Source of the DNA: an uncultured Pelagibacteraceae bacterium
GTDB lineage: Bacteria > Pseudomonadota > Alphaproteobacteria > Pelagibacterales > Pelagibacteraceae
Direction: 5' to 3'
Assembly: GCA_902583075.1 (NCBI GenBank)
Contig: CACHUN010000001.1
Location: 62,001-126,000, forward strand
Length of the DNA: 64,000 nucleotides
The notes under the pieces: generated by a model
Databases searched by the model: none
What the model saw: only the letters and a program-made list of their open reading frames with translations
Told to the model about the DNA's origin: nothing
Shown here: piece by piece, positions 50,929 through 56,520 of the stretch
How positions within the stretch are numbered: the first letter of the stretch is position 1
Layout: each line of letters opens with the position of its first letter
Made by a program: the position numbers and the translations under genes

Positions 50929-50937
50929 AATTAATTG

Positions 50938-51837
50938 ATGAGTATCACTAGATCTGAGAGTAACTTTTATAAAAAAAATGGCTACTTATTAAAAGATGAG
51001 CTTGTTTCAAAGAAAGATATCAATAAGTTAAATTCACTTATTAATAAGATTGTGACAAAGGAAAAGAACAGTAAAAAAAAAGTTAAAGATCAAGGTGGAA
51101 CCCAAAGTTACAATAATTATCATTTCGTATTCAATAGCAACTCGTCAAAAAATAAAGAAATACTTCGATTAAATAACCCTCAAAATAACAACAAATTATT
51201 TTATGATTTATCAAGAAATAAAAAGATTATTGATATTGTTAAAAAGCTTATCGGTGGAACAGTAAGATTTCATCTTGGAAAATTAAATTTTAAATTACCT
51301 AATAAGAAAAAAGGTAGTCTAGTTGAATGGCATCAAGATTTTGCTTTTTATCCTCACACAAACGACGATTTAATTACAGTAGGTATTTATCTTGAAGATT
51401 GTGATGAAAAAAATGGTCCTTTAAAAGTTATTAAAGGATCTCATAAAAAAGAACTATTTAGTCATCATAGTAATGATAATTACTTCGTAGGTAAAATTAA
51501 TACTAAAAAAAACAAGATTAACTTAAAAAAATCAGTTTCATTAACTGGAAAAGCAGGTTCGGTTGCTTTCTTTCATTGTCGAACAATTCATGGTTCAGGC
51601 TTAAATCACACTAATGGATCGAGACCACTAATATTATTTGGTTATAGAGCATGTGATGCTTGGCCTATAATTAATGATGGTAATCCTCATCCAGAAACAA
51701 ACTTTGAAAATTATGATAAAAATATTATTTATGGAAAAAAATCAATTGTTCCAAGGTGTACTGATGTACCTGTAATTATTCCATTACCTAAAAAGAAACA
51801 TTATGTATCTATTTATCAATTACAAAAAAGTAAATAA
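50938..51837 (+). CDS. Phytanoyl-CoA dioxygenase (PhyH) family protein
   Basis: I chose ATG 50938 over the TTG three bases earlier. The 299-residue protein has the double-stranded beta-helix with the iron ligands HQD in VEWHQDFAFYPH (near 135) and the distal His in HCRTIHGSGLNHT. An arginine in the following GSRPLILFGYRA should bind 2-oxoglutarate. GPLKVIKGSHKKE is a typical family segment. It hydroxylates an unknown small substrate; PhyH relatives act on acyl-CoAs, osmolytes and phosphonates. Its 3' end overlaps the next gene by 35 bases. Confidence 0.88.
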   Translation: MSITRSESNFYKKNGYLLKDELVSKKDINKLNSLINKIVTKEKNSKKKVKDQGGTQSYNNYHFVFNSNSSKNKEILRLNNPQNNNKLFYDLSRNKKIIDIVKKLIGGTVRFHLGKLNFKLPNKKKGSLVEWHQDFAFYPHTNDDLITVGIYLEDCDEKNGPLKVIKGSHKKELFSHHSNDNYFVGKINTKKNKINLKKSVSLTGKAGSVAFFHCRTIHGSGLNHTNGSRPLILFGYRACDAWPIINDGNPHPETNFENYDKNIIYGKKSIVPRCTDVPVIIPLPKKKHYVSIYQLQKSK

Positions 51838-53578
51838 ATTATTTTTATTAATTTCATTTTTTTTAGTTCTTTTTGGAACTGCTAATTCTACAGAAAGGAC
51901 AAAAAAGGAAATCAAGATTGGAGTGTTTATGGAAGACTTTCAAAAATTTGGAAAGTTTGAAAAAATAAATGATACACCACCTGGCATGTTTCCTAATATT
52001 GAAAATTCTTTTCATCAAAAACAGGTAATTGCACAGAAGAAGTTCATTGATACATTTATTACCAAAAAAGGGCAGATGGAAAAAAATACTGACCAAGTTA
52101 TCCTTGGAATGGCATATTTTGAGTTTTTTTATATGCAACAATTAAAAGATAATAAAAAGTCTTTAGAAACATTTGAGAAAAAATATCCTAAAATTAATGC
52201 CGCTACTAAGAAAAATATTCAAAAAATTTATGGATTGAATAAAGCTAGAAAATCAATGAGAGAAGCTTTAGGCTTATCTTTAGAAAACACTCCTGAGGAG
52301 GCTATAGAAAGATACTACGTACTATATAAACTATTAAATCAAGCTGAAATAAAAACAATCAACTTAACGAAAGAAGAAAAAAATAATTCAAAATTACATA
52401 CTAATATTTCCAAAAATATATCTCAGTTAAAAAATATAACAGAAGATAAATTAAGTAACAGATTGACAGAAAAAAAATTTAATAGCGAGTATAAAAAAAA
52501 TTTTAAAAAACTTTCTAAAAATTTAAAAAAATCGGTAACAATCAAAGATTATGAACTCTTAACATCTTTTATTATTGAAATAGATAAATATAAAAATACT
52601 AATAATTCAGGATTATTGAGCGGATATAAAATTGCAGAATATATTCTTCAAAAGATCAAGAATGATAAAATTATAAAAAAGTATGAACAAGATCTTTCAA
52701 ATGCCAAATTTGAAATATTCTCTCAAAAAGAATTATCAATTTTAGGTGATATTACAAAATCAATGAAAGTTACTAAAAATGAGAAGTCTAATGATATTCA
52801 GTTACAAATAATGAATCTTGAAAATGGAGGCATACCCGTAAATAGATTTCTAGAAGTTTATCGAGATGAATTAAATGTGAGACTTGATGATATAAATCTT
52901 CAAGTTGCATCAGCATCTAAAATGAAAGACTGGACATTAAGTGATTGGGCAAATGCTTGGAAAAATCCAATTCCTGAGATAATAGTTGATGATGCAGGTA
53001 TTGAGGTTTCTCTTTCACCTGAGGAAATTGAATCAATCAAAGCTCAATTAGCGATGAAAAACTTCAAAGAATTATTAGATCTAGACTCGTTTAGTAGTCT
53101 GATACAAAATGAAGCTAATAACTTTAATGATATCGCAAAAAATTTAGATATTAATTCTGATAGCTTCAAGTTTTCATTTACTTTAGACGATTTTGCAAGG
53201 TCATTTGGTGATACTTACAATTTGGATATAAATAATTATGCTGATCTTACAGATTTAGCAAACGCACAACACAATGCTAATTGGTCTGTAGAGGAATATG
53301 CTGCTGCATACCAAGATAATGTTGATATGATAAATGCACTTCAGTCAGGATCATTAAGTTCATTTGATGCTGGAAGAATAGCTGCTGCAGCAAATAGTGG
53401 TTTACAGGAAGTTGCAGATACGATTAGAGCTGCAACAAGTGCTGGAGTTTCAGTCGATTTAGAGGCAACAGCACAAGGACTTGGTTATGGTAGTTTTGCA
53501 GATGCTGTAGCAGCTTATAATCAACAACATGGAACTAGTTATTCTGTTGAGGAAGCTAAACAGTCTCTAGGTCAATAA
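51803..53578 (+). CDS. Large secreted protein with recurring aromatic/alanine helical modules, unknown
   Basis: The 591-residue protein starts at ATG 51803, inside the PhyH gene. This is the only start giving a signal peptide (hydrophobic 13-27, cut near TANST). Residues 30-360 are Lys/Asn/Glu-rich and helical. From 370 a short module recurs: DWTLSDWANAWKN (376-388), FSFTLDDFARSFG (457-469), NWSVEEYAAAYQD (493-505), YGSFADAVAAYNQ (562-574) and SYSVEEAKQSLG (579-590). The C-terminus is Ala-rich and acidic, and the protein has no cysteines. No family is recognised. A periplasmic or surface role is inferred. A terminator follows. Confidence 0.72.
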   Translation: MYLFINYKKVNKLFLLISFFLVLFGTANSTERTKKEIKIGVFMEDFQKFGKFEKINDTPPGMFPNIENSFHQKQVIAQKKFIDTFITKKGQMEKNTDQVILGMAYFEFFYMQQLKDNKKSLETFEKKYPKINAATKKNIQKIYGLNKARKSMREALGLSLENTPEEAIERYYVLYKLLNQAEIKTINLTKEEKNNSKLHTNISKNISQLKNITEDKLSNRLTEKKFNSEYKKNFKKLSKNLKKSVTIKDYELLTSFIIEIDKYKNTNNSGLLSGYKIAEYILQKIKNDKIIKKYEQDLSNAKFEIFSQKELSILGDITKSMKVTKNEKSNDIQLQIMNLENGGIPVNRFLEVYRDELNVRLDDINLQVASASKMKDWTLSDWANAWKNPIPEIIVDDAGIEVSLSPEEIESIKAQLAMKNFKELLDLDSFSSLIQNEANNFNDIAKNLDINSDSFKFSFTLDDFARSFGDTYNLDINNYADLTDLANAQHNANWSVEEYAAAYQDNVDMINALQSGSLSSFDAGRIAAAANSGLQEVADTIRAATSAGVSVDLEATAQGLGYGSFADAVAAYNQQHGTSYSVEEAKQSLGQ

Positions 53579-53600
53579 AATTTAAATAAAAAGAGCAAAT

Positions 53601-53627
53601 AAGTAATAGAAAATTACTTGTTTTTTT
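53601..53627 (+). terminator. Rho-independent terminator after the 591-residue gene
   Basis: AAGTAAT (53601-53607) and ATTACTT (53613-53619) form a seven-base stem with loop AGAAA, followed by G and seven T. It ends the upstream transcript and lies only 13 bases before the next ATG. Confidence 0.72.
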
Positions 53628-53640
53628 GTTAAAATATTAA

Positions 53641-53994
53641 ATGAGCATTAAAAAGAAAACTTTAAAAACAGTTGCAGCAGTTGCTCTTGTTGCATCAACA
53701 GTTACACCTACCTTAATAGCATCAACAGCAATGGTTTCTTTAAGCTCAACACCTGCAGAAGCTGCCTGCTATGGTTCAGGATCCTATAAATGGTGTACTG
53801 ATGGATCAACCTATTCCACATATGGAAATTCTTACTATGCCTACAATTCAAATACTGGCACTAATTGGGGAGGATCTACTTATGGCAATACATCATACGG
53901 TTACTCTTATTATTCTAGCGGCGGTTCTACAAATTGGTCATATTCATATTATGGTGGGTATGGAAGTGGATATAGTTGGAGTTTTGGTAACTAA
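53641..53994 (+). CDS. Small secreted Tyr/Gly/Ser-rich low-complexity protein
   Basis: The 117-residue protein has a long signal peptide, with a basic start SIKKKTLKT and a hydrophobic core to about 30, probably cut after TPAEA (37-41). The mature part of about 76 residues is almost entirely Tyr, Gly, Ser, Asn, Thr and Trp. It holds about 17 Tyr and 4 Trp, in repeats such as SYGYSYYSSGGSTNWSYSYY. Two cysteines lie near its start (Cys43, Cys52). Such composition is seen in adhesive, amyloid-like or phase-separating surface proteins. The function is unknown. No Shine-Dalgarno sequence is visible, and the terminator lies 13 bases upstream. Confidence 0.72.
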   Translation: MSIKKKTLKTVAAVALVASTVTPTLIASTAMVSLSSTPAEAACYGSGSYKWCTDGSTYSTYGNSYYAYNSNTGTNWGGSTYGNTSYGYSYYSSGGSTNWSYSYYGGYGSGYSWSFGN

Positions 53995-54002
53995 ATCTTA
54001 AG

Positions 54003-54728
54003 GTGAGTTCAAAAAAAATTGGCTGGTTAATAGAAGATGGAAGGCCTGGTAACTTCATTTATCAATCTCCAAAACCAATTGTAATAGACAGAGATAAACC
54101 TCTTTCTCACATGGCTGTGCAAGCTTGCCCAGCAGTAAATCAATTTGAGAGTAGATATTTTGAAGTTACAACTCCATTTGACCTAAGATTAAGATGTGAA
54201 AAAAAAAATAATGAATTTGAGATTTATTCTGTGCCAGAGGGAACAAGAATAGACGAGGAATTAATTAAAAGAAACTTAAACTTAATGCCAAAAGAGGCGT
54301 GGAGACGTGGAGATCGACCAGTTATACAAATAGAATGTCCTTATGCATTTGTAACTGATGAAAATGTATACTTAACACAATTTCCTCCATTTTTAGAATT
54401 TAACTCATCTTATTGGCCAGGTGTTTTGATTTCAGGAAGATTTAATATCACAAATTGGCCAAGAACATTATCTTGGGCTTTTGAGTGGTGCGATTTATCA
54501 AAGGACTTAATACTTAAAAGAAATAAACCATGGTTTTATGTATTTTTTGAGTCTGATAACCCAGAGGACTCATTTAAATTAATAGAAGCGGAATACACGG
54601 AAGAACTAAGAAAATATAAATCTTCAATGCTTCATACACCTAGATTTGTTTCAAACACTTTTTCACTATTTAAGACCGCAAAAGAAAGAAGACCAAAAAA
54701 ACTTTTAGTGGAGAAAAAATATGATTGA
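54003..54728 (+). CDS. Conserved-looking hypothetical protein (possibly DUF6065-like)
   Basis: The 241-residue protein starts at GTG 54003, eight bases after the previous stop. It is probably cytoplasmic, with many Trp, Pro and aromatic residues. It is built of segments such as GWLIEDGRPGNFIYQSP, VQACPAVNQFESRYFEV, QIECPYAFVTDENVYLTQFP and INWPRTLSWAFEWCD-like NWPRTLSWAFEWCD. From memory this resembles DUF6065-type proteins, but I cannot confirm it. The next gene overlaps by eight bases, so the two are made together. Confidence 0.68.
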   Translation: MSSKKIGWLIEDGRPGNFIYQSPKPIVIDRDKPLSHMAVQACPAVNQFESRYFEVTTPFDLRLRCEKKNNEFEIYSVPEGTRIDEELIKRNLNLMPKEAWRRGDRPVIQIECPYAFVTDENVYLTQFPPFLEFNSSYWPGVLISGRFNITNWPRTLSWAFEWCDLSKDLILKRNKPWFYVFFESDNPEDSFKLIEAEYTEELRKYKSSMLHTPRFVSNTFSLFKTAKERRPKKLLVEKKYD

Positions 54729-55059
54729 AAAAGATAAAAATCAAATTATTCAAAAATTAGACACAAGCGAACCACCGGAAGAGGTTTTTACCGAAGGTGT
54801 AAGTGATTTGATTGTTTACAACAATATTGTTAAATTTAATATTTTTTCCAGACCAATTCATACTAAAGAAAGCTTAAATAAAATGAAGATCAATAAGACA
54901 CTAACTTTTACTCAAGACAATTTTGAAAAGTTTTTGGATCAACTTAACAAAGAATACTTTAACATTAAAAAGCAGATCAATAATGAAAGTTTAGAAACAA
55001 ACGAAACAGATAAAGATATTAAGCCAAACGAACCTCCAAAAGGTTCAAGAATATTATAA
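54721..55059 (+). CDS. Small hypothetical protein partnered with 54003
   Basis: The 112-residue, highly charged, probably cytoplasmic protein has no membrane segment or signal. Recognisable parts are KLDTSEPPEEVFTEGVSDL, YNNIVKFNIFSRPIHTKESL and a disordered acidic tail, ETNETDKDIKPNEPPKGSR. It overlaps the preceding gene by eight bases. No family is recognised. Confidence 0.62.
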   Translation: MIEKDKNQIIQKLDTSEPPEEVFTEGVSDLIVYNNIVKFNIFSRPIHTKESLNKMKINKTLTFTQDNFEKFLDQLNKEYFNIKKQINNESLETNETDKDIKPNEPPKGSRIL

Positions 55060-55067
55060 ATCAAATT

Positions 55068-55259
55068 ATGAAAAAACCTTTTAATAATAATCAAAAAATT
55101 TTATTATTTGGTATAGCATCTGTTTTTGTAATGTTTTTACTATATCAACTCTTTCTTTCTCCCTATGCTCAATGTGTAGATGGATATAAAAAAAGATATG
55201 GCAGTGGTGAGATCGGTACTTCTAATGCAAAAGTATTTTGTGGGTCTCAAAGAAGATAA
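55068..55259 (+). CDS. Small membrane-anchored protein, unknown
   Basis: The 63-residue protein has one membrane helix (about 11-30). A short exported part has two cysteines (AQCVDGYKKRYGSG and VFCGSQ) that could form a disulfide. It lies eight bases after the previous gene in the same direction. No family is recognised. Confidence 0.6.
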   Translation: MKKPFNNNQKILLFGIASVFVMFLLYQLFLSPYAQCVDGYKKRYGSGEIGTSNAKVFCGSQRR

Positions 55260-55313
55260 GCGAACAAGGTTACCAACTCTATGATTATTATAGCCTCCAT
55301 ACCAGTAAACATA

Positions 55314-55886
55314 CTAACTATCCTTTAAAATTGTTTTTTCTTTGCAACGTTTATAAAACTCAGCAAATTTTTCTGAGAAATTTGTTAAATTCCATTTATT
55401 TTTTGTAATATCGAAGTATTTATTTACTTCAAAATGTAATCCATTTGTTAAAGAAATTTCATATTTATCATTTTCTTCAATAAACCCTGTTAGTAATTTT
55501 GCATACTTTTGCGTTTCATAACCTCCAAGTTCAAATACTACCCAATGAGCTCTATGGTCTAATATTTTTTCAATATGAATTACTTCAGCATGAAACTCAT
55601 TATCGTTAAGAGTTATAGGAAGTTTCTTATTTTCAAATTGATATATATTTGAATCACCTTTAGTTGTTATAAAGGTAAATAATTGATGAATCTTGTTACA
55701 GTTTTTGTAATTTAAAGAGAAAATTAATCTATCACCATAAATGTATTCACCATTTTTAGTTAAATAAATATAGTCTTTATCACCCTCTGCAATTGCCCAT
55801 CCATCATTAGCACGGGCATGTGGATGGACAATTAAGAGGATCACGAAAGCAACTAAATGAAGAAAAAAGAATAATGATAATCTCAC
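55314..55886 (-). CDS. Secreted protein of unknown function
   Basis: The 190-residue protein has a signal peptide (hydrophobic 4-20, cut near HARA-NDG). The mature domain is beta-rich with DKDYIYLTKNGEYIYGDRL and LPITLNDNEFHAEV, and two cysteines (KNCNK and KRCKEK). No family is recognised. It is on the strand opposite to the preceding accessory genes, converging with them across a 54-base gap. The next plus-strand genes are divergent. Confidence 0.65.
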   Translation of the reverse strand: MRLSLFFFLHLVAFVILLIVHPHARANDGWAIAEGDKDYIYLTKNGEYIYGDRLIFSLNYKNCNKIHQLFTFITTKGDSNIYQFENKKLPITLNDNEFHAEVIHIEKILDHRAHWVVFELGGYETQKYAKLLTGFIEENDKYEISLTNGLHFEVNKYFDITKNKWNLTNFSEKFAEFYKRCKEKTILKDS

Positions 55887-56076: not shown

Positions 56077-56520
56077 ATGAGTGCTGAAGCAATAAGTTTT
56101 AATTGGAAATGTAAACATACTTGGAGAAGAAGTGCCAAGAACACAGCTTGGTGTTTGTTAGGTTGTGCTATTGGTGATTTTGGAACTATATTGTTTTTTC
56201 AATTAACAAAAATTCCATTCCCAGTTTTAAGCATTATGATTTTAGCCATAATTAATGGACTAATAACAAGTGTTATTTTAGAAACATTTATTTTAATGAA
56301 ACAAGATTTTTCATTTCAAAAGGCGTTGAAGACTGCTTTAGGAATGAGCTTTATTTCTATGATTAGTATGGAAATAGCAATGAATTTAACAGACTTTTTG
56401 TTAACTGGTGGAGCAATACTTACTTGGTGGGTTGTTCCAATAATGTTAGCAGTTGGTTTTGTTACTCCTTGGCCTTACAATTATTGGAGACTTAAAAAAC
56501 ACAATCAGGCTTGTCATTAA
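56077..56520 (+). CDS. DUF4396 family membrane protein
   Basis: The 147-residue protein has four membrane segments. The DUF4396 signature KCKHTWRRSAKNTAWCLLGC (11-30) is followed by AIGDFGTILFF, and FVTPWPYNYWRLKKH comes near the end. The function is unknown; the Cys/His-rich opening hints at metal binding. It is followed by two further small genes in the same direction. Confidence 0.82.
   Translation: MSAEAISFNWKCKHTWRRSAKNTAWCLLGCAIGDFGTILFFQLTKIPFPVLSIMILAIINGLITSVILETFILMKQDFSFQKALKTALGMSFISMISMEIAMNLTDFLLTGGAILTWWVVPIMLAVGFVTPWPYNYWRLKKHNQACH

What the first reader, a model, noticed from the sequence alone, without database searches (positions are those of the whole stretch)
51803..55259. 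Unrecognised secreted/accessory gene cluster with a Tyr/Gly/Ser-rich protein
Five genes in a row have no family I can name with confidence. They are a 591-residue secreted protein, a 117-residue secreted protein of extreme Tyr/Gly/Ser/Trp composition, a 241-residue cytoplasmic protein, an overlapping 112-residue charged protein, and a 63-residue membrane-anchored protein. The composition of the small secreted protein recalls adhesive, amyloid or condensate-forming proteins. A coupled set (secreted matrix or surface material plus helper proteins) in a free-living streamlined cell would be new and deserves a look.
Basis: partly seen in the sequence, partly recalled or inferred. Interest (0 to 1): 0.68.

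Follow-up and report, generated by a model that had tools for sequence, protein, structure and literature searches.

The report
Inserted Tyr/Gly-rich gene cassette, SAR11 genome
The five genes are not one set: a long secreted helical protein native to this ocean-bacterium lineage sits beside a small inserted four-gene cassette that pairs a tyrosine/glycine-rich secreted protein with an undescribed helper family, a pairing seen once more in a distant bacterium.

Summary
All five ORFs exist as described, but they are two things. The 591-aa protein belongs to the SAR11 (Pelagibacteraceae) lineage: nine genome loci with the same surroundings carry it without the other four genes. It looks like a fusion of two secreted proteins that some SAR11 genomes encode as adjacent genes. 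The other four genes (117, 241, 112, 63 aa) form one insertion of about 1.69 kb (window 53593-55283), seen so far only in this genome, at a gene-turnover site between convergent genes. The 241-aa protein joins an unnamed alphaproteobacterial family (up to 51% identity), with distant relatives in T4-like cyanophages. In 8 of 18 bacterial loci the family lies near type I secretion or RTX genes, against 1 of 20 control regions. Its closest relative is preceded, with the same 8-nt gap, by a Tyr/Gly-repeat peptide gene. Small proteins weakly similar to the 112-aa one follow the 241-type gene in three other loci. My reading: 241 and 112 are cytosolic helpers for glycine-rich secreted substrates, here the 117-aa protein. 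The linkage is shown; the mechanism is inferred. Amyloid or matrix function is untested.

The parts
50935..51837 (+). PhyH-family (phytanoyl-CoA dioxygenase-like) gene, left flank of the variable site
   Evidence: Pfam PF05721 E 2.2e-31; 93-96% identical in the relatives shown
51803..53578 (+). 591-aa secreted, mostly helical protein; SAR11-lineage gene, apparent fusion of a small secreted partner (about residues 10-230) with part of a large secreted partner (about 297-442); not part of the insertion
53593..55283 (.). insertion of about 1.69 kb carrying the next four genes, absent from all relatives examined
   Evidence: homology to L187 ends at 53592 and resumes at 55284
53641..53994 (+). 117-aa Tyr/Gly/Ser-rich protein with Sec-type signal peptide (by eye), two Cys after the signal
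   Evidence: no relative found in 149 other relatives' genomes, phage records, plasmids or viral contigs, but low-complexity masking weakens
54003..54728 (+). 241-aa protein, probably cytosolic, of an unnamed alphaproteobacterial/cyanophage family (PHROG 17480); tentative dUTPase-like fold
54721..55059 (+). 112-aa small partner; weakly similar proteins follow the 241-type gene in L226, L264 and (after 281 nt) L231
55068..55259 (+). 63-aa protein with one predicted membrane segment (by eye) and two Cys; orphan in the searches made
55247..55312 (-). remnant of an 18-codon membrane micro-ORF (MFVGMEA...) whose end is cut by the insertion; now reads as 21 codons
55314..55886 (-). 190-aa secreted protein (by eye), native right neighbour; N-terminal part conserved in relatives, body often different
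56077..56520 (+). DUF4396 gene, conserved right flank
   Evidence: PF14342 E 2.3e-39; found in 103 of 150 genomes, own genome included

Best explanation
SHOWN: a SAR11 genome carries a 1.69-kb insertion with four tightly packed same-strand genes (117-241-112-63) at a gene-turnover site between convergent genes. The neighbouring 591-aa gene is independent of it. The 241 gene belongs to a family found in scattered alphaproteobacteria, often near type I secretion or RTX genes, and once directly behind a Tyr/Gly-repeat peptide gene. LIKELY: the 112-aa protein is the family's small partner. INFERRED: 241 and 112 act together in the cytosol on glycine-rich, low-complexity export substrates (RTX proteins or Tyr/Gly peptides elsewhere, the 117-aa protein here), binding or modifying them so that they stay exportable. 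The 117-aa protein would then leave by its own Sec signal and become surface or extracellular material or a released peptide. The 63-aa membrane protein may help at the membrane.
For: Insertion: L187 has the 591 (92%) and 190 (92%) genes with no insert; breaks at 53592 and 55284. Absence elsewhere: 0 of 149 other relatives for 241, 117 and 112; no hit for any of the four at E up to 0.5 in 105 partly overlapping SAR11 loci, 0.92 Mb, with masking off. Family: window 241 is 35-41% identical to eight bacterial proteins, 51% to L263, and groups with bacteria, not phages, 100/100. Secretion link: T1SS ABC, membrane-fusion or RTX genes in 8 of 18 loci against 1 of 20 control regions, Fisher p 0.007; the L227 ABC protein passes the TIGR01842 (PrtD) cut-off. 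Tyr/Gly pairing: L263 7340-7600 encodes five YGDAYG units differing only at synonymous sites and ends 8 nt before the 241-type gene, the same gap as in the window; by the threshold used it is the only such small ORF in the 18 case loci, and none occurs in the 20 control loci. Small partner: left out of the profile, the window 112, L226 and L264 proteins are each the top non-training hit of 2002 ORFs, E 0.011-0.021, all directly after the 241-type gene.
Against: The Tyr/Gly peptide in L263 has no Sec-type signal, unlike 117, and the two share composition and position, not sequence. Ten of 18 bacterial loci show no T1SS or RTX gene nearby; the eight that do come from 4 of 13 genera, so the p value overstates independence. 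The window's genome shows no T1SS exporter: the best match to a PrtD-type ABC protein is 26% over residues 276-571 of 594, though the assembly is 84% complete. In phages the family often sits beside phoH and an exonuclease gene and none of the held viral loci has a significant match to 117, 112 or 63. Left-out L231 and L227 small proteins rank only third (E 1.6) and second (E 4.7). The L263 locus itself has no T1SS or RTX gene and no small partner was recognised there. The insertion was seen in one assembly only, and no reads were examined.
Confidence: 0.4

Rival explanations
1. The 117-aa protein is a ribosomally made precursor peptide and 241 (with 112) is its tailoring or leader-binding machinery, so the cassette makes a modified small peptide, for example an antimicrobial or metal-binding one.
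For: Short Tyr/Gly-rich ORF directly before the 241 gene in two distant bacteria with the same 8-nt gap. In three loci of one genus (L228, L229, L262) the 241-type gene is preceded by a nucleotidyltransferase-type gene (PF14907 in L228; the other two by eye) and followed by a T1SS-type exporter; that PF14907 goes with peptide-modification clusters is recalled, not tested.
Against: 241 and 112 match no family in Pfam or NCBIfam above cut-off, nor do the relatives scanned. 117 carries a Sec-type signal. Seventeen of the 18 bacterial loci have no Tyr/Gly-rich small ORF.
Confidence: 0.2
2. The four genes are passing cargo of a SAR11 indel site, unrelated in function to each other, soon to be lost.
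For: The site differs from strain to strain: G031, G004 and G005 have only about 95 bp between PhyH and the right neighbour, while G087 has many kb of other genes there. The insertion is in one genome only. Gene indels are known in SAR11 (PMC2217521, part of the abstract and passages).
Against: Packed one-direction layout with an 8-nt gap and an 8-nt overlap. The 241-small-gene order recurs in L226, L231 and L264, and the Tyr/Gly-241 order in L263.
Confidence: 0.25
3. All five genes, 591 included, form one coupled surface-matrix system.
For: 591 and 117 both look secreted and are neighbours.
Against: No match to the other four in any of 30 loci with a 591 homolog; the insertion boundary lies between 591 and 117.
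Confidence: 0.03
4. The cassette is phage-derived (241 is related to genes of T4-like marine phages).
For: PHROG 17480 match; 12 records of five Synechococcus phages; 86 viral-contig stretches, 80 kept.
Against: Window 241 groups with bacterial proteins with 100/100 support and is 35-51% identical to nine of them, against 18-26% to the phage proteins. No 117, 112 or 63 relatives found in phage records or viral contigs.
Confidence: 0.07

Closest known systems
Type I secretion / RTX loci of alphaproteobacteria (PrtD/HlyB-type ABC transporter, HlyD-type fusion protein, RTX substrate)
   Same: Relatives of 241, and in two loci (L227, L231) a small gene that may be related to 112, lie within or beside such loci (the small-gene likeness in these two is weak)
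   Different: The SAR11 cassette has no exporter, and none was found in its incomplete genome; its putative substrate has a Sec-type signal and no RTX repeat
PHROG 17480 (unknown function), Synechococcus phages S-SM2, S-SCSM1, S-T4, S-H38, S-CAM3
   Same: Homologous protein with shared invariant residues
   Different: Phage members are 18-26% identical; in S-SM2 and S-SCSM1 the gene sits between phoH and an exonuclease gene, in the other three elsewhere
Curli and the pelagimyophage curli cluster (PMC7029224)
   Same: A secreted low-complexity protein in a SAR11 context; that paper speculates about curli-like fibres made by infected SAR11 cells (passages read)
   Different: No curlin match for 117 and no curli-secretion family among the nine window proteins scanned
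SAR11 gene indels and hypervariable regions (PMC2217521)
   Same: A small polymorphic insertion in an otherwise syntenic region
   Different: This site and cassette do not appear in the passages read

Membership tests
   no match to the other four in 30 loci with a 591 homolog; 117, 241, 112 in 0 of 149 other relatives
SAR11 gene indel | syntenic empty site in close relatives | tested here: met
   L187 and seven further loci
Transposon or site-specific element | terminal inverted repeats, flanking direct repeats or an integrase | tested here: inconclusive
   none seen at the boundaries in a repeat search of 53400-55500; a target duplication cannot be judged because relatives differ at the junction; no integrase-like family among the proteins scanned
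PHROG 17480 | profile match | tested here: met
   241 aa, E 5.9e-14 over profile positions 28-175 of 222
Alphaproteobacterial 241 family | full-length similarity and grouping in a tree | tested here: met
   35-41% identity to eight proteins; 51% to L263; 100/100 split from phages
Type I secretion system | PrtD/HlyB-type ABC transporter and HlyD-type fusion protein with the cassette or in the genome | tested here: inconclusive
   none among the neighbouring proteins scanned; best genome match 26%; assembly 84% complete; fusion protein not searched in the genome
dUTPase | dUTPase fold | tested here: inconclusive
   model mean pLDDT 65; the 50 rows listed by VIA-align are all dUTPases, Z 7.7-8.6, 110-135 residues at 2.8-4.1 A, near the level the tool calls common; Foldseek best E 9.1e-4 but rmsd 11.6 and TM 0.30; no significant PDB sequence match
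dUTPase | catalytic dUTPase motifs | not tested
   not mapped residue by residue
Curli (CsgA) amyloid | curlin repeats | tested here: not met
   no curlin family at E up to 1 in Pfam for the 117-aa protein
RiPP precursor and maturase | known tailoring-enzyme domain beside a short peptide gene | tested here: not met
   no family above cut-off for 241 or 112; an unknown enzyme type is not excluded
SAR11 secreted pair (small partner plus large partner) | 591 residues 10-230 match small partners and 297-442 match the N-terminal part of large partners | tested here: met
   small partner: best blastp E 6.5e-18, seven of seven hit; large partner: E 2.9e-6 and 2.9e-5 in two of six, 0.094 in one, no match in three

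The most novel reading that the evidence does not exclude
The 241 and 112 proteins are the core of an undescribed module, spread among alphaproteobacteria and carried into a streamlined SAR11 cell, with a relative of 241 in T4-like cyanophages. The module prepares glycine-rich low-complexity proteins (RTX repeats, Tyr/Gly repeats) for export, and the 117-aa protein is a new kind of secreted Tyr/Gly material produced with its dedicated helpers by a free-living ocean bacterium.
Probability: 0.22. Interest if true: 0.7.

Novelty: new variant of a known kind. Interest (0 to 1): 0.5.

Why it matters
If the reading holds, it gives a testable function to a protein family without a name that spans bacteria and marine phages, and links that family to export of glycine-rich material. 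It also corrects a tempting five-gene story: the 591-aa gene looks like a natural fusion that marks two adjacent SAR11 secreted proteins as functional partners, which matters for reading SAR11 surface biology.

Tried and rejected
Phage origin of 241: rejected by the tree. A phage source for 117, 112 or 63: no relatives in phage records or viral contigs. Plasmids: no 117 match; for 241 only Paracoccus aminophilus pAMI5, with MFS, glycosyltransferase and sulfotransferase genes downstream and no T1SS or RTX gene in the 18.7 kb. BLAST masks low-complexity sequence, so the 117 searches in phages and plasmids are weak; a masking-off search of 105 SAR11 loci was also empty. No metagenome collection was searched. 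The 63-aa protein was not searched in the relatives' whole genomes.

DUF6065: I recalled a likeness of 241 to DUF6065, but no such Pfam match appeared at E up to 1 for the window protein or 0.5 for two bacterial and one viral relative, and no paper in the library holds the term; dropped.

Structure: 241 was modelled on the phage-rich alignment at mean pLDDT 65 only; no jobs remained for the bacterial alignment, so the dUTPase-like fold is tentative. 591 modelled at mean pLDDT 78, mostly helical; Foldseek found no PDB match at E 0.001 or better; its profile's only PDB hit is a short coiled-coil-like one at E 0.017 (the coiled-coil label is mine). The 112, 117 and 63 proteins were not folded.

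A search of 16 genomes, G846 and 15 related to it, with its own 241-type protein found no further homolog. Promoter and terminator scans were not clearly above shuffles. Literature searches, seen as listings: SAR11 + hypervariable + genomic island + Pelagibacter, DUF6065, SAR11 + type I secretion, Pelagibacter + giant protein, the string YGNTTY, type I secretion + dUTPase, SAR11 + glycine-rich. Of these I opened passages of two papers. I recalled that YGN-type repeat proteins are common in bacteria but could not test it. 'Undescribed' means not found in these searches.

Rows: in the T1SS test all 18 loci were kept, including broken or partial genes (L234, L236) and loci cut by contig ends (such as L226, L227, L236, L264); case regions were 6-19 kb, control regions 15 kb from four genomes. 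For the tree 15 bacterial and 14 phage proteins were used; L229 (same genus as L228), L234 and L236 (partial) and most viral loci were left out. A4 used 58 of 66 usable viral proteins out of 80 loci. One of the 14 genomes counted (G146) is a short weak match with stops, probably chance. Notebook correction: entry 1 gives six to seven full-length 591 homologs in relatives; the answer shows five over most of the length.
Full report
OBSERVATION. The five ORFs are present at the stated places. The window lies at 62001-126000 of a 421,787-base contig in a genome of 1,186,957 bases in 15 contigs, 84% complete. Close matches to its 591-aa protein come from records titled Pelagibacteraceae, so this is a SAR11-type genome. 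Pfam and NCBIfam give no match above cut-off for any of the five. The 117-aa protein is the most extreme of 1147 ORFs examined.

THE FIVE GENES ARE TWO UNITS. A profile of the 591-aa family found 30 loci in the genome collection, and none has a match to the other four genes (L208 and L213 hold only the N-terminal part, and L213 ends right behind it). In nine of them (L184-L190, L200, L207) the 591 gene (80-98% identical) lies in the same surroundings, with DUF4396 on the right; L186 lacks a PhyH match. L187 carries 591 and the 190-aa gene, both 92% identical, with no insert: similarity ends at window 53592 and resumes at 55284. Of eight loci compared this way, six stop at 53592 exactly, one at 53591 and one at 53542. 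In the seven other than L187 the right-hand match starts later (55776-55816) because the body of the 190-aa gene differs there. The insertion is thus about 1.69 kb and holds 117, 241, 112 and 63. Its G+C (31.6%) is ordinary for the window (30.3%). Among the 149 other relatives' genomes searched, 117, 241 and 112 have no match, whereas 591 matches in 10 others, five of them over most of its length.

THE SITE. The stretch between the PhyH gene and DUF4396 differs between strains. In G031, G004 and G005 the 591 gene and the insertion are absent and only about 95 bp separate PhyH from the stretch similar to window 55790 onwards; G005 has another gene before DUF4396. L184 and L185 have 591 and about 0.4 kb to DUF4396. 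G087 carries a truncated 591 followed by caspase-like and other genes up to a contig end, and more such genes on the contig that holds its DUF4396; G048 has a different set (these labels are by eye). The insertion cuts an 18-codon hydrophobic micro-ORF that is intact in 11 relatives, where its changes are largely synonymous or conservative. Gene indels in SAR11 core regions are reported in PMC2217521 (part of the abstract and passages).

THE 591-AA PROTEIN. Residues 10-230 match small secreted proteins of 158-278 aa in G054, G073, G055 and G041 (seven of seven, E 1.5e-10 or better). Residues 297-442 match the N-terminal part of the large protein encoded next door in L142 (E 2.9e-6) and L144 (2.9e-5); the L143 match (0.094) is not significant and the large proteins of L145-L147 gave none. 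Six small-partner genes are followed directly by a large secreted protein of 823-1648 aa; a seventh (L142 13477-14190) is not. So 591 is best read as a fusion of such a two-gene pair. The N-terminal module was found in 23 of 297 genomes, own genome included, all in one of 68 genera. The model is mostly helical (mean pLDDT 78) without a PDB match.

THE 241-AA PROTEIN. It matches PHROG 17480 and hypothetical proteins in 12 records of five Synechococcus phages. Profile searches hit 9 of 289 (class), 5 of 299 (phylum) and 14 of 347 (class) genomes, the window's own genome included each time and the samples overlapping; in the phylum-wide sample the four others are all of the same class. The window protein is 35-41% identical to eight bacterial members and 51% to L263, and lies on the bacterial side of a 100/100 branch. 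In two of five annotated phages and nine of the ten viral contigs printed (labels there by eye), the phage member lies between phoH and an exonuclease gene; in S-T4, S-H38 and S-CAM3 it does not.

NEIGHBOURS OF THE BACTERIAL FAMILY. Of 18 bacterial loci examined, 8 hold a T1SS-type ABC or fusion protein or an RTX-repeat protein, against 1 of 20 15-kb regions from four of the same genomes (Fisher p 0.007). The eight come from 4 of 13 genera, several from one genus or genome, and case regions ranged from 6 to 19 kb, so the p value is optimistic. L227's ABC protein exceeds the PrtD model's cut-off. Examples: L231, order 241-type gene, small gene, ABC, fusion protein; L228, L229 and L262 (one genus), 241-type gene, ABC, fusion protein.

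TYR/GLY PAIRING. In L263, the closest relative, an 86-aa ORF with five YGDAYG units that differ only synonymously ends 8 nt before the 241-type gene; in the window the gap is also 8 nt. By the threshold used it is the only Tyr/Gly-rich small ORF in the 18 case loci, and there is none in the 20 control loci. It has no Sec-type signal (by eye), so the two peptides are alike in composition and position, not in export route. L263 shows no T1SS or RTX gene.

THE 112-AA PROTEIN. A profile of the other four small proteins ranks the left-out window protein first among non-training hits of 2002 ORFs (E 0.014), likewise L226 (0.021) and L264 (0.011). L231 ranks third and L227 second, both with E above 1. 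In the window, L226 and L264 the small gene overlaps the end of the 241-type gene (8 nt in the window and, with the start I chose, 8 nt in L226); in L231 it is the next gene after 281 nt; in L227 it lies at the other end of the T1SS operon. This is support, not proof.

MECHANISM. The recurring theme is glycine-rich, low-complexity export substrates beside 241-type genes. I therefore propose that 241 with 112 binds or modifies such substrates in the cytosol. In this SAR11 cell the substrate would be the 117-aa protein, exported by its own signal, since no T1SS exporter was found in the incomplete genome. Steps shown: insertion, family, linkage. Steps inferred: interaction, export role, fate of 117. 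A dUTPase-like fold is suggested by a model of modest quality; a shared fold would not show function.

VERDICT. The five-gene system falls; a smaller, more specific and more testable unit takes its place. Interest 0.5.

Noticed in passing
window 55247-55312 (-); L184, L185, L186, L187, L189, L190, L207, L148, L150, L151, L152: An 18-codon hydrophobic micro-ORF (MFVGMEALLILSLLGIIF and variants) is conserved in 11 relatives with largely synonymous or conservative changes; in the window the insertion destroys its end.
   Followed up: partly
L142 5379-11161, L143 10399-14649, L144 9279-14782, L145 9268-12467, L146 7304-10338, L147 5372-8460: Two-gene SAR11 units: a small secreted protein followed directly by an 823-1648 aa secreted protein, several with Ala/Gln-rich or Gly/Met/Pro-rich collagen-like ends. 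The 591-aa gene looks like a fusion of such a pair.
   Followed up: partly
L137 6341-8465 and onwards; L150: At the same site G087 carries the first 266 residues of a 591 homolog followed by caspase-like proteins (by eye) and tandem families of small secreted proteins.
   Followed up: partly
window 55314-55886 (-); L184-L190, L200, L207: The 190-aa neighbour keeps its N-terminal part across strains while the body varies: 92% in L187, 71% in L188, 35-41% in L186, L207 and L200, and only 42-45 residues aligned in L184, L185, L189 and L190.
   Followed up: partly
L027, L028, L030, L036, L037, L038, L039, L045, L047: In marine T4-like viral contigs the 241 family sits between phoH-like and exonuclease-like genes, an unexplained place for a family tied to secretion loci in bacteria.
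   Followed up: partly
L228 5934-6992, L229 5963-7132, L262 8329-9501: A nucleotidyltransferase-type gene (PF14907 in L228; the other two by eye) precedes the 241-type gene and a T1SS-type exporter.
   Followed up: no
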